From Macromonas bipunctata (GTDB taxonomy: Bacteria > Pseudomonadota > Gammaproteobacteria > Burkholderiales > Burkholderiaceae_C): DNA of 64,000 nucleotides. The DNA is taken from contig NZ_NWBQ01000011.1 in NCBI RefSeq assembly GCF_002837135.1, positions 1-64,000 on the forward strand. The letters are read 5' to 3'. Of this stretch, positions 12,180 to 59,373 are shown one piece after another. Below the pieces are notes generated by a model. It had not been told where the DNA came from. It saw only the letters and a list, made by a program, of their open reading frames with translations, and made no database searches. The number at the start of each line of letters is the position of its first letter. The stretch's first letter is position 1. Made by a program: the position numbers and the translations under genes.

Positions 12180-12315
12180 GGGCGGGAACCTCGCAGGTGA
12201 AGGGCCAAGGGGTGTTGAACGGGTGAACCTTGGCATTTTTACACCAAAGAGGCAAAACGGCCGGTTGGTGCGAAAATACTGGTATGGGTTTGTTTGTTAA
12301 TGCAAGGAGCGTGTG

Positions 12316-12720
12316 ATGCACCCTTATGTACAGGCCGCCGTGGGTGGCGGGTTGATTGGACTGGCCAGCTGGCTGGTGCTGGCCGGGCTGGGGCGGGTCA
12401 CTGGCATCAGCGGCATTGCCTGCGGGGTAATGGGCCCGCAGACGCCAGCGGTGCGCTGGCGCTGGGCGTTTCTGGTCGGGCTGGTGGCGGGCGGCACGCT
12501 GTTCGGGCTGTGGCTGGAGCCGCCGACGCTGCCCGAGCGTTCGCCGCTGCTGCTGCTGGCGGCGGGGCTGCTGGTGGGCTACGGTACGGTGCGGGGCTCG
12601 GGTTGCACCAGTGGCCACGGCGTGTGCGGGCTGGGGCGGCGCTCCGTGCGTTCGCTGGTGGCGGTGCTGACGTTCATGGCCACCGCGTTTGCCACCGTGT
12701 TTGTGATGGGACAACTGTAG
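12316..12720 (+). CDS. YeeE/YedE-family sulfur transporter half (PmpA-like)
   Basis: This 134-residue membrane protein is the first half of a two-gene YeeE/YedE-type permease for sulfur compounds (PmpA type). Four hydrophobic segments can be seen. The conserved cysteine motifs [12 protein letters not shown] and [12 protein letters not shown] mark the sulfur path in this family. I start at ATG 12316, with AAGGAG six bases upstream; the preceding GTG codon is in frame. Its partner (14462-14962) is normally adjacent but is here 1.7 kb away, because an IscB element lies between them. The final codons of this gene overlap the predicted guide end of the element's RNA. Confidence 0.87.
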
Positions 12721-13045
12721 TCAATCACCCCGTCCTAAAGGACGAGGCTTGGGCATTAATTGCTTGAAGCCTGAGATTGATCAGACCGAGTAGTCGAAAA
12801 GCTACTACGTTGCCAGTAAGTACAAGACTCACCTCGGAGTGCTTCCTCAGCTCTGAGCTCTGAAAGTCGCAGCAGCAGACAAGCGTCGGGTACGTACGAA
12901 CCGGGCTGCGATAGGCACTCAGGTGCCAAGCTGGCTGACAACATGGTCGAGGGGAGCGATGCCGCAAGGTATCTGTCACAAGGCCCGTAAGGGCAAAGCT
13001 GTATCCAGCCGGTAGCTGTGCTGTTCACAGTGTGTAGGAGATGTC
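12721..13045 (+). ncRNA. Candidate omega RNA (HEARO RNA) of IscB
   Basis: This 325-base non-coding stretch directly precedes iscB on the same strand, where IscB omega RNAs are encoded. It is rich in short hairpins: the end hairpin at 12726-12750, GTAG/CTAC near 12790-12806, GGCAC/GTGCC around the tetraloop TCAG near 12916-12931, and GCCC-GTAA-GGGC near 12983-12996. In this family the guide is at the 5' end and is read from DNA outside the element. That would put it roughly at 12704-12725, in the last codons of the pmpA-like gene. Boundaries and fold are by eye; a covariance-model search would settle them. Confidence 0.7.
12726..12750 (+). repeat. Left-end hairpin of the IscB element
   Basis: The layout is CACCCCG, a 4-base arm TCCT, loop AA, arm AGGA, then CGAGGCTT. 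The right-end hairpin has the same frame (C-W-CCCCG, arm, RA loop, arm, CGAGG-Y-TT) with a different but still complementary arm. The arms covary, which supports a folded structure of the kind recognised at IS200/IS605 ends. Confidence 0.72.
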
Positions 13046-14374
13046 GTGGCTGTATTGGTATTGGATCGCAGCGGTAAACCTTTAATGCCTTGCAGCGAAA
13101 AGCGTGCGAGATTGTTGCTCGAGCGTGGTCGTGCCCGGGTGCATCGCGTCGTGCCGATGGTCATACGCCTGGTTGACCGACAGGTGGCGGACTGTACGCT
13201 GCAGCCGGTGCGCGTGAAGTTGGACCCAGGCAGCAAAACCACGGGCTTGGCATTGGTGCGTGACGCGGAGCGCATTGATGTCACCACGGGTGAGATTCAG
13301 CGGGAAGCCGCTGTCCTAAACCTGATGGAGCTGGTGCACCGTGGGCGTCAGATTTCAGAAGCATTGAGTGCGCGCAGCCGTATGCGCAGGTGTCGTCGCG
13401 GCAATTTGCGCTACCGAGCTCCTAGGTTCTTGAACCGGCGCAAGCCGCAAGGTTGGTTGCCACCGTCACTGCGGCATAGAGTGGATACCACCGTGGCTTG
13501 GGTCGAACGTTTGCGGCGCTGGACGCCTGTCGTGGCCATCTCTTCGGAGCTGGTGCGTTTCAATATGCAAGCGCTTGCCAATTCCGAGATTGCTGGCGTA
13601 GAGTACCAGCAAGGCACGCTGGCAGGTTACGAAGTACGTGAATACCTGCTGGAGAAGTGGGGCCGCAAGTGTGCTTATTGTTGCGCCACTGAGGTGCCAT
13701 TGCAGGTAGAGCACATCCAGCCAAAGGCCCGAGGTGGAACTAACCGCATCAGCAACTTGACCTTGGCGTGCCGACCGTGCAACGAGCGCAAGGCAGCTAG
13801 GCCGGTGCAAGAGTTTCTAGCTAAAGAGCCGCAACGGCTGGCGAGCGTCCTAGCGCAAGCCAAACGTCCCTTGAAAGATGCCGCTGCCGTCAACACCACC
13901 CGGTGGGCCTTGGCCAATGCGCTCAAAGACACTGGCTTGCCGGTCGAACTGGCTTCAGGCGGTCAAACAAAATACAACCGAGTTCGCTTGGGGTTGCAAA
14001 AAACCCATGCCTTAGATGCGGTTTGCGTGGGTGTAGTAGGAACAACCGTGACCCACAGCCAACAACCGACGTTGACGATCACGTGTACGGGGCGAGGCAG
14101 CTACCAGCGCACACGCCTGGATCAGTACGGCTTCCCGAGAGGCTACTTGATGCGAACCAAGCGCGTCAAAGGCTTTGGGACTGGTGACATGGTGCGGGCT
14201 CACGTCACTTCCGGCAAGAAAGTCGGCAACTATGTTGGTCGTGTAGCGGTACGCGCGAGCGGCAGCTTCAACATTCGCACCAGCGGCGAATTGGTGCAAG
14301 GCATCTCACACAAGTATTGCCACTTGGTGCAGCGCGCCGACGGCTATGGCTATTTCTTCAACTACAGGGCATAA
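13046..14374 (+). CDS. iscB: IscB, RNA-guided HNH/RuvC nuclease
   Basis: This 442-residue protein is an IscB, the ancestor-type relative of Cas9 that cuts DNA under guidance of an omega RNA. It starts with the PLMP domain (SGKPLMPCSEKRARLLL). RuvC-I follows with LDPGSKTTGLAL, then an Arg-rich bridge helix region (SRMRRCRRGNLRYRAPRF). RuvC-II is AISSELVRFN. The inserted HNH has CAYC, VEHIQPKARGG and CRPCNERK. RuvC-III is THALDAVCVG. All the catalytic positions I can identify are present. The start is GTG 13046, with TAGGAG six bases upstream. Its GC is lower than that of the flanking transporter genes. Activity is inferred from intact motifs. Confidence 0.93.
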   Translation: MAVLVLDRSGKPLMPCSEKRARLLLERGRARVHRVVPMVIRLVDRQVADCTLQPVRVKLDPGSKTTGLALVRDAERIDVTTGEIQREAAVLNLMELVHRGRQISEALSARSRMRRCRRGNLRYRAPRFLNRRKPQGWLPPSLRHRVDTTVAWVERLRRWTPVVAISSELVRFNMQALANSEIAGVEYQQGTLAGYEVREYLLEKWGRKCAYCCATEVPLQVEHIQPKARGGTNRISNLTLACRPCNERKAARPVQEFLAKEPQRLASVLAQAKRPLKDAAAVNTTRWALANALKDTGLPVELASGGQTKYNRVRLGLQKTHALDAVCVGVVGTTVTHSQQPTLTITCTGRGSYQRTRLDQYGFPRGYLMRTKRVKGFGTGDMVRAHVTSGKKVGNYVGRVAVRASGSFNIRTSGELVQGISHKYCHLVQRADGYGYFFNYRA

Positions 14375-14422
14375 CGAAAAAGGATGCGGGTAAGGGTCGT
14401 GCTAGGGCACGACGCGCTCTGC

Positions 14423-14447
14423 CTCCCCGGCATGAATGCCGAGGTTT
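14423..14447 (+). repeat. Right-end hairpin of the IscB element
   Basis: The layout is CTCCCCG, arm GCAT, loop GA, arm ATGC, then CGAGGTTT. It mirrors the left-end hairpin with a compensated arm. About 14 bases separate it from the ATGA that begins the pmpB-like gene. Confidence 0.72.
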
Positions 14448-14461
14448 CCCGCGCAGCTTTG

Positions 14462-14962
14462 ATGACAACAACGACGCTGAATCCGAATCAACCTGCCAAC
14501 AATACGCCGGGCGTGGCGGTGCTGCTGCTGGCGCTGGTGGCCGGGGTGCTGTTTGCGCTGGGGCTTGTGGTGTCGGGTATGACGCAGCCGGGCAAGGTGC
14601 TGGGCTTTTTGAACCTGGCGGGCATGGCGCAAGGGGAATTTCCGGGCGCGTGGGATCCGAGCCTGGGGTTTGTGATGGGCGGCGCGGTGCTGGTGACGCT
14701 GATGGCGTTCTGGATCACGCCCGCCGATCCGCAGCACCCGCAGCGCAAGCCGTGGCTGGCACCGAGGTTTGAACTGCCCACCCGCACCGAGCTGGACGCG
14801 CGCCTGCTCACGGGTGCGGCGCTGTTTGGCATTGGCTGGGGCTTGGCCGGTTATTGCCCCGGCCCGGCGCTGGCGTCGCTGTTTACCGGTGGCAGCGACG
14901 TGTGGTGGTTTGTACCCGCCATGCTGGCGGGGATGTGGCTGGCGCAACGCACCAGCCGCTGA
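14462..14962 (+). CDS. DUF6691/YeeE-family sulfur transporter half (PmpB-like)
   Basis: This 166-residue membrane protein is the second half of the PmpAB/YeeE-type sulfur permease. It has four or five hydrophobic segments, the GMTQPGKVLGFL motif near the N-terminus and the conserved cysteine motif GLAGYCPGPALAS near the C-terminus. I start at ATG 14462 (MTTTTLNPN), right at the edge of the IscB element; the open frame upstream is element sequence. Its original upstream ribosome site was probably displaced by the insertion, and only a weak purine stretch now precedes it. Expression may therefore be altered, but the frame is intact. Confidence 0.85.
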   Translation: MTTTTLNPNQPANNTPGVAVLLLALVAGVLFALGLVVSGMTQPGKVLGFLNLAGMAQGEFPGAWDPSLGFVMGGAVLVTLMAFWITPADPQHPQRKPWLAPRFELPTRTELDARLLTGAALFGIGWGLAGYCPGPALASLFTGGSDVWWFVPAMLAGMWLAQRTSR

Positions 14963-59172: not shown

Positions 59173-59255
59173 GGGGGTGACTCCGTGACAAAAAAGTGAA
59201 CCACCACCCCACGCTGGGCATTTGCAACACACGCACGCGCACCAGCAAGGGGTGG

Positions 59256-59368
59256 GCGAGCGCCGTTGTCTGTGGCCTGCGCGTGCCGCGTCAGGCTGGC
59301 CGAGCCTCACCGCCTGCGTGGTGGCCATAAGGCAAACACCAGCGCCGGGGTTGCAACGCTCCTCGGTA
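59256..59368 (-). promoter_or_regulatory. SAH riboswitch of the ahcY operon
   Basis: On the minus strand the conserved 5' core CCGAGGAGCG-UUGCAAC begins at 59366. A GAGGCUCGG segment at about 59308-59300 closes the first stem, and the 3' pseudoknot part CAACGGCGCUC lies at 59268-59258. These match the three conserved blocks of the SAH riboswitch known upstream of ahcY in betaproteobacteria, in order and with matching pairing. The loop between the first two blocks is longer than in the Ralstonia example. Binding of SAH is expected to raise ahcY-tlyA-metF expression. Confidence 0.85.
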
Positions 59369-59373
59369 CAGCA

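What the first reader, a model, noticed from the sequence alone, without database searches (positions are those of the whole stretch)
12704..13045. Predicted omega RNA whose guide is the 3' end of the host transporter gene
Seen: a 325-base hairpin-rich non-coding stretch directly upstream of iscB. Known: IscB omega RNAs carry the guide at their 5' end, read from DNA next to the element. Inference: the guide here is about 16 bases around 12704-12725, in the last codons of the pmpA-like gene. It would target the empty pmpA-pmpB junction, so the nuclease could favour its own retention or return at this site.
Basis: partly seen in the sequence, partly recalled or inferred. Interest (0 to 1): 0.8.

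Follow-up and report, generated by a model that had tools for sequence, protein, structure and literature searches.

The report
IscB guide RNA at operon junction
A small mobile element sits exactly between two neighbouring bacterial genes and carries an RNA-guided DNA cutter whose guide is copied from the end of the first gene, so it should recognise and cut copies of this site that lack the element; relatives of the element often sit right at the start codon of ordinary host genes.

Summary
Rfam HEARO (RF02033) matches 12720-12962 at 96.4 bits (cut-off 83), before an intact iscB (13046-14374; NF040563, 429 bits). The element is 12720-14461. Its 5' guide is 12704-12719 (TGATGGGACAACTGTA), the last codons of pmpA. 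Across 37 aligned loci, window included, 40 of 57 consensus RNA pairs show compensatory changes.

The right flank is ATGA (14462-14465), pmpB's start codon. Without the element the junction reads ...CTGTA|ATGA... and aligns, with no gap at the junction, to a relative's uninterrupted pmpA-pmpB. In 8 of 8 further continuous empty-site comparisons ATGA is kept; three keep all 16 guide bases, the other five 10-15.

Beyond the finding: these elements favour start codons. ATGA opens an ORF of at least 100 codons at 39 of 47 sites, against 428 of 1844 control ATGAs; hosts include purM, pyrB, leuB and ftsZ. The guide is then the initiation region or operon overlap before a start codon.

Cleavage, transcription and retention are inferred from relatives, not shown. 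The system is known; whether the start-codon habit is published I could not settle.

The parts
12313..12720 (+). pmpA-like gene (Sulf_transp); in the occupied allele its stop TAG is made of host TA plus the element's first G; in the joined empty site it reads TAA
   Evidence: PF04143 30.5 bits over cut-off 27; codons read
12704..12719 (+). predicted 16-nt guide, host DNA at the 5' end of the omega RNA; once in the window; followed by GTCA, not ATGA
   Evidence: position next to HEARO base 1; flank without conservation in relatives; window search; the 16-nt length is recalled for IscB, not measured here
12720..14461 (+). whole iscB element (1742 bases), inserted without target duplication between pmpA and pmpB
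   Evidence: ends shared with relatives, empty-site alignment, second copy with unrelated flanks
12720..12962 (+). omega RNA scaffold, Rfam HEARO RF02033
   Evidence: 96.4 bits; covariation
12983..12994 (+). conserved 3' hairpin GCCC-GTAA-GGGC of the omega RNA, beyond the Rfam model
   Evidence: CGTAAG invariant in 37 of 37; 3 of its 4 pairs with changes on both sides
13046..14374 (+). iscB, 442 aa, GTG start; PLMP, RuvC-I D60, RuvC-II E168, HNH H223, RuvC-III D324 present
   Evidence: NF040563 429 bits, PF14239 and HNH, invariant columns; the roles of the residues are recalled
14396..14413 (+). hairpin in the right end of the element
   Evidence: read from the sequence
14422..14444 (+). sub-terminal hairpin CCTCCCCGGCAT-GA-ATGCCGAGG of the right end; its kind recurs in relatives
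14462..14465 (+). ATGA: predicted target-adjacent motif, host DNA; also pmpB's start codon
   Evidence: [AG]TGA in this place in the 65 elements whose right end was assigned (a condition of the assignment); present in 9 of 11 continuous empty-site alignments
14462..14962 (+). pmpB-like gene (DUF6691), split from pmpA by the element but itself intact
   Evidence: PF20398 146 bits; MTTTTLNPN...

Best explanation
This is a complete, transposase-less IscB (HEARO/ISC-type) element, 12720-14461. Its omega RNA is read through from the pmpA operon, so that its 5' end carries the last 16 bases of pmpA as guide. IscB with this RNA would bind a site that holds this sequence followed by ATGA, that is the uninterrupted pmpA-pmpB junction, and cut it; repair from a sister copy that has the element puts the element back. 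The occupied site is not cut because the guide is there followed by the element's own GTCA. Insertion exactly before an ATGA start codon leaves pmpB whole, and the element's first G turns pmpA's TAA stop into TAG. Shown: RNA, intact enzyme, element ends, guide and motif positions, precise empty sites of relatives, start-codon preference in relatives. Inferred: transcription from the operon, the 16-nt length, cleavage, and gain by retention.
For: HEARO match and covariation; IscB equivalog with the recalled catalytic residues in invariant columns; 67% identity to the Allochromatium warmingii protein (recalled as the characterised AwaIscB with TAM ATGA). Flank left of the element unconserved up to -1. 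Eleven of 15 comparisons of joined flanks with uninterrupted relatives are continuous at the junction, 9 of them with ATGA; guide identity 16/16 for purM (G050), pyrB (G647) and pyrC (G704), 15/16 for purM in the window's own genome, 13/16, 12/16, 11/16 and 10/16 in four others, 10/16 for the window's own site in G050. Close elements with unrelated flanks show movement: six Rhabdochromatium copies 83-95% identical with guides alike at 2-9 of 16, Paraburkholderia L040/L041 95.9% with 9 of 16. The related IsrB cuts at TTGA/ATGA, and its motif was sought downstream of the target (PMC9581776, passages). TnpB records its insertion site in its guide and biases inheritance on plasmids (PMC11870625, passages). 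Of the 12 near matches of the guide in the genome (up to 3 mismatches) the 7 that could be read are not followed by [AG]TGA. No sigma-70-like match on the + strand in 12200-13574, in line with read-through but weak, since the scan finds none in front of pmpA either.
Against: No RNA data. No transposase in cis; the only Y1 transposase found in this genome, on another contig, looks REP-associated by my reading, so the copy may be stranded. The second copy is only 79% identical in DNA, so there is no sign of recent movement in this genome. No same-species or same-genus genome was available (one search held only G000), so the perfect empty allele was not seen; the nearest has 6 guide mismatches. 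Four of the 15 empty-site comparisons did not run through the junction, and two of the 11 that did (the window's site against L005 and L008) did not show ATGA.
Confidence: 0.75

Rival explanations
1. The element is a stranded remnant: RNA and enzyme are intact or nearly so, but it neither moves nor is kept by cutting; it persists because insertion before a start codon does little harm. (It shares the anatomy with the best explanation, so the two odds are not exclusive.)
For: No transposase in cis and one Y1 gene in the genome, REP-associated by my reading; the two copies in the genome are 79% identical in DNA; 6 of 399 genomes of the family, G000 included, carry a relative at E <= 1e-100.
Against: ORF open over 442 codons, catalytic columns and RNA pairs kept, which decay would erase; relatives with several close copies at different sites.
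Confidence: 0.35
2. The omega RNA is transcribed from a promoter inside the element or is trimmed, so that the pmpA sequence is not the working guide; the element then has no site-specific target.
For: No 5' end is known; the guide lies outside the element and so depends on host transcription.
Against: No promoter-like match on the + strand between 12200 and 13574 (weak, as none is found before pmpA either); HEARO begins at the first element base; HEARO 5' UTRs are expressed and a guide RNA is required (PMC9755519, section 9).
Confidence: 0.1
3. The start-codon habit follows only from the ATGA motif and from loss of insertions that break genes; it has no part in the mechanism.
For: Most ATGA sites lie inside genes and would be purged: 1366 of 1706 control sites fell inside crude gene calls. 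Relatedness was not removed (L040 and L113 are one site in two species).
Against: Among sites that break no called gene, 24 of 35 insertions but 96 of 340 control ATGAs are start-like. The caller is crude: it puts 14 of 49 insertions 'inside' genes, among them the window's, purM's and pyrB's, which homology places at starts.
Confidence: 0.5
4. The pair RNA plus IscB serves the host, for example by regulating pmpAB or cutting incoming DNA.
For: Only the setting: pmpA-pmpB lies next to a metallo-beta-lactamase/rhodanese gene.
Against: Relatives sit at unrelated genes with unrelated guides.
Confidence: 0.05

Closest known systems
AwaIscB of Allochromatium warmingii (OMEGA family; its function and TAM ATGA are recalled, the genome record is L062)
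   Same: 67% identical protein, GTCAA left end and alignable RNA, ATGA right flank that opens an ORF of 340 codons
   Different: Different host gene and guide; cleavage was not tested here
IsrB of Desulfovirgula thermocuniculi (PMC9581776, passages)
   Same: PLMP and RuvC, large omega RNA with guide, motif downstream of the target, cuts with TTGA/ATGA
   Different: IsrB lacks HNH and is a nickase; the window protein has HNH
TnpB of IS200/IS605 as retention or gene-drive nuclease (PMC11870625, passages; PMC10278001, start of abstract in a search listing)
   Same: Guide records the insertion flank, target is the empty site, motif is the insertion motif
   Different: Recalled: TnpB's guide lies at the 3' end of its RNA and the enzyme is Cas12-like; IS200/605 elements often carry tnpA
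HEARO RNAs and enzymes (Rfam RF02033; PMC9755519, section 9 and passages)
   Same: Same RNA and protein family; few associated with TnpA
   Different: Its main text has neither 'start codon' nor 'ATGA'. Weinberg 2009, recalled as reporting ATGA/GTGA integration, is not held

Membership tests
IscB (OMEGA RNA-guided endonuclease) | protein is an IscB by curated model | tested here: met
   NF040563 429.2 bits, cut-off 175, residues 3-329
IscB (OMEGA RNA-guided endonuclease) | PLMP, split RuvC and HNH with catalytic residues | tested here: met
   PF14239, PF01844; D60, E168, H223, D324 invariant in 25 of 25 sequences; their roles are recalled
IscB (OMEGA RNA-guided endonuclease) | HEARO-type omega RNA directly upstream | tested here: met
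   96.4 bits, cut-off 83
IscB (OMEGA RNA-guided endonuclease) | guide at 5' end read from flanking host DNA | tested here: inconclusive
   position and lack of conservation fit; no RNA data
IscB (OMEGA RNA-guided endonuclease) | target-adjacent motif 3' of the target, present at the empty site | tested here: met
   ATGA in 9 of the 11 empty-site alignments that are continuous at the junction, of 15 made; that it is needed for cutting was not tested
IscB (OMEGA RNA-guided endonuclease) | RNA-guided cleavage | not testable with these tools
   needs an assay
IS200/IS605 insertion sequence | Y1 transposase TnpA in the element | tested here: not met
   six-frame search of the genome with PF01797 finds only C52:7179-7478, on another contig
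IS200/IS605 insertion sequence | insertion next to a fixed tetranucleotide without target duplication | tested here: met
   empty sites continuous at the junction, with ATGA
IS200/IS605 insertion sequence | sub-terminal hairpins at both ends | tested here: met
   left hairpin in the RNA, right hairpins 14396-14413 and 14422-14444 read from the sequence

The most novel reading that the evidence does not exclude
IscB elements of this clade are start-codon homing elements. Their motif ATGA is read as a start codon (or as the TGA/ATG overlap of two operon genes), so the guide is the host's translation-initiation region or the end of the preceding gene. Such targets are transcribed in the right direction, which makes the guide RNA, and some are conserved between species, which widens the range of empty sites that can be cut (all 16 bases for purM, pyrB and pyrC in one relative each; 10-15 of 16 in five further comparisons). 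The element then rebuilds initiation of the host gene: in 23 of 65 elements the iscB stop falls exactly on the junction (ATGA or TGATG overlap), in some others the right end brings a Shine-Dalgarno sequence. The window's copy shows the placement but neither repair device.
Probability: 0.45. Interest if true: 0.75.

Novelty: new member of a known kind. Interest (0 to 1): 0.5.

Why it matters
The locus is a clean natural case of a guide copied from a host gene, with element ends, motif and empty site placed to the base, so retention by RNA-guided cutting can be tested directly. If the start-codon rule holds, it explains how a relative of Cas9's ancestor could settle at essential genes (purM, pyrB, leuB, ftsZ) without breaking them, why its motif is ATGA, and where its guides get their promoter; and it makes the guide of a newly found element predictable in kind: the sequence in front of a start codon.

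Tried and rejected
Stability as evidence for the RNA: the fold of 12704-13045 is not more stable than shuffles (z -0.99); covariation was used instead. Trans targets: 13 places in the genome match the guide with up to 3 mismatches, the reversed control pattern 5; of the 12 beyond the site itself 7 could be read and none is followed by [AG]TGA. Selection for an open iscB tail up to the junction: 23 of 65 iscB frames are open over the last 90 bases but so are 61 of 130 other frames, so openness is no sign of selection; all 23 open frames end on the junction overlap, which two of three frames would do by chance, and the elements are related. Shine-Dalgarno in the right end: 4 of 49 in one pattern, 8 of 65 in a wider one, no clear excess over the 10.7% of control ATGAs (first pattern). 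A strict start-codon test (ORF of 60 codons and an in-frame stop within 30 codons upstream) gives 21 of 49 against 218 of 1863 and misses true starts such as the window's own.

Rows dropped: the tool kept 80 of 147 relatives. Right ends were assigned in 63 of the 80 plus the window and copy 2, 65 in all, with [AG]TGA as a condition and with some offsets set by hand where candidates competed. Of the 17 unassigned loci six had a pattern hit that I left out by eye as not lying behind a right-end hairpin or not fitting (L047, L063, L074, L094, L099, L111); L063 (TTGA) and L064 (ATAT) may have other flanks. A leave-one-out profile, itself trained on the chosen ends, hit the same base in 35 of 65, within 3 bases in 23, elsewhere in 1 and nowhere in 6. 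The left end was found by its pattern in 58 of 80 loci. Both ends: 49 of 82; two of these (L070, copy 2) left the ORF count because the DNA ended. Some of the 39 long ORFs may be chance ORFs (L083 looks like one).

Considered and rejected: a riboswitch or leader of pmpB, a group I or II intron (HEARO is the only Rfam match there).

Full report
What is there. It precedes a GTG-started ORF of 442 codons (13046-14374) that is an IscB by NCBIfam (NF040563, 429 bits) with the RRXRR and HNH domains of Pfam; the residues that I recall as catalytic (D60, E168, H223, D324) are invariant in 25 aligned sequences. The 17 solved sequences it matches are IscBs, Cas9-like HNH nucleases and IsrB. On the left is a short Sulf_transp gene (pmpA-like), on the right a DUF6691 gene (pmpB-like).

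RNA evidence. In 37 aligned stretches from the element's first base to iscB (window, second copy, 35 of the 80 fetched loci), RNAalifold finds 57 pairs, 40 with a compensatory change in at least one sequence. The window's fold is not unusually stable. A conserved hairpin at 12983-12994 extends the RNA beyond the Rfam model.

Ends of the element. Of 147 relatives found in genome contigs the best 80 were fetched. A left end GTCAA...CCC was found at the expected distance in 58 of 80. The right end is a hairpin, a short tail and then [AG]TGA in 65 elements including the window and the second copy (ATGA 62, GTGA 3). Both were search conditions. Support that does not come from them: close copies whose likeness ends at the same bases on both sides, the empty sites, and in part a leave-one-out profile of the right end (same base in 35 of 65, within 3 bases in 23 more). 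The window's element is therefore 12720-14461, with ATGA at 14462-14465.

Empty sites. Flanks of insertion sites were joined and compared with genomes that lack the insertion. Eleven of 15 comparisons are continuous at the junction, nine with ATGA; the two without are the window's site against the more distant L005 and L008. The Malikia purM guide is identical in its congener G050 (16 of 16) and differs at one base in the window's own genome; guides at pyrB and pyrC are identical in G647 and G704 (16 of 16 each). Four others have 13 (L037/G050), 12 (L041/G647), 11 (L068/G553) and 10 (L035/G050) of 16. The window's own site has 10 of 16 in G050. A genus search held only G000 itself, so no closer genome was seen. 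In the joined empty site pmpA ends CTG TAA and pmpB starts with the overlapping ATG; with the element pmpA ends CTG TAG. The names pyrC, ubiG, xthA and trpF are my reading of the translations.

Guide and motif. The flank before GTCAA carries little information (0.01-0.23 bits; a faint purine preference at -12 to -8), as host DNA should. The guide is therefore 12704-12719 if its length is 16, a value that I recall. It occurs once in the window. In place it is followed by GTCA, so the locus should not cut itself. The related IsrB cuts at TTGA/ATGA; its motif was sought downstream of the target (PMC9581776, passages). AwaIscB, recalled as reading ATGA, is 67% identical.

Mobility. Six Rhabdochromatium copies are 83-95% identical over the element, with guides alike at 2-9 of 16 and 60-base flanks alike at 11-23 positions. 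Paraburkholderia L040 and L041 are 95.9% identical with different guides (9 of 16 alike); L040 and L113 share one insertion at pyrB in two species. The window's two copies are 79% identical in DNA and 84% in protein. No Y1 transposase lies in the element; the only one found in the genome is a 235-aa frame that I read as REP-associated.

A rule beyond the finding. The ATGA next to these elements opens an ORF of at least 100 codons in 39 of 47 sites, against 428 of 1844 ATGAs in the same flanks. Of 51 such ORFs of at least 60 codons I scanned 20 of my choice; 19 carry Pfam domains, several from the first residues on, for instance LeuB 4-353, GshB 1-128, MsrA 7-160. PurM, PyrB, LeuB and FtsZ are borne out by domains; PyrC, UbiG and an exonuclease III are my reading. 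Two further elements, in G371 and its congener G050, precede ORFs that I read as TrpF and XthA, and the second copy in G000 an ORF of 141 codons. Shine-Dalgarno-like sequence precedes the junction in 19 of 49 empty sites, against 204 of 1907 controls. In 11 of 49, against 104 of 1885 controls, an upstream ORF of at least 100 codons ends at the TGA of ATGA, the overlap type of operon junction. With crude gene calls, 24 of 35 non-disruptive insertions are start-like, against 96 of 340 controls; 14 of 49 insertions fall 'inside' calls, some wrongly. Independent annotation: of 52 plasmid records with a relative I opened 14; in 7 the next annotated gene starts at the ATGA (H1, H2, H4, H10, H15, H20, H26), in H19 at an ATGG in the same place, in H18 8 bases on, and in 5 (H7, H8, H16, H17, H22) no annotated gene starts at a recognisable junction. 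Two of the 7 lie between a parA and a parB gene, in Deinococcus and in Trichormus; their left ends were not found by the pattern. None of these counts corrects for relatedness.

How it works. Shown are the anatomy, the RNA, the ends, the guide and motif positions and the empty sites. Inferred are transcription through pmpA into the RNA, cutting of the empty allele, and repair from an occupied copy. That a guide recording the insertion flank restores or spreads an element is described for TnpB (PMC11870625, passages); for IscB I recall it from a paper that is not held.

Known or new. In the held library the searches listed no paper whose title or shown abstract describes start-codon placement; I looked inside three of them (PMC9755519, PMC9581776, PMC11870625) by term search, and read one section of the first. 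The founding papers asked for are not held, so I do not claim that it is unpublished.

Noticed in passing
23 of 65 related elements, e.g. L040, L042, L045, L061; plasmid copies L159 and L161: The iscB reading frame runs through the right-end hairpin and its stop falls exactly on the junction with the host start codon (ATGA or TGATG/TAATG; 1-base overlaps in the annotation), which could couple translation of the host gene to iscB; not so in the window. Chance is not excluded.
   Followed up: partly
L167, L171, L172, L091, L095, L097, L104, L106: Right ends of these mostly cyanobacterial elements carry Shine-Dalgarno-like sequence just before the host start codon, as if the element brings a new ribosome-binding site; no clear excess in the whole set.
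   Followed up: partly
L165 and L172 (plasmids): IscB elements sit between parA and parB, at the parB start, in Deinococcus and in Trichormus.
   Followed up: no
L174 and L081: Two distant IscB elements (genome G050 of Malikia's genus and a Leptospirillum MAG) sit at the start codon of genes that I read as exonuclease III, with different guides.
   Followed up: no
G000:C21:4712-6431 (second copy): A second element in the same genome, 84% identical IscB, sits before a 141-codon ORF MNKLKTRM....
   Followed up: partly
59251-59370, - strand: SAH riboswitch match just over the gathering score (38.3 against 37 bits).
   Followed up: no
12983-12994: The Rfam HEARO model stops short of a conserved GCCC-GTAA-GGGC hairpin; CGTAAG is invariant in 37 of 37 aligned sequences.
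   Followed up: yes
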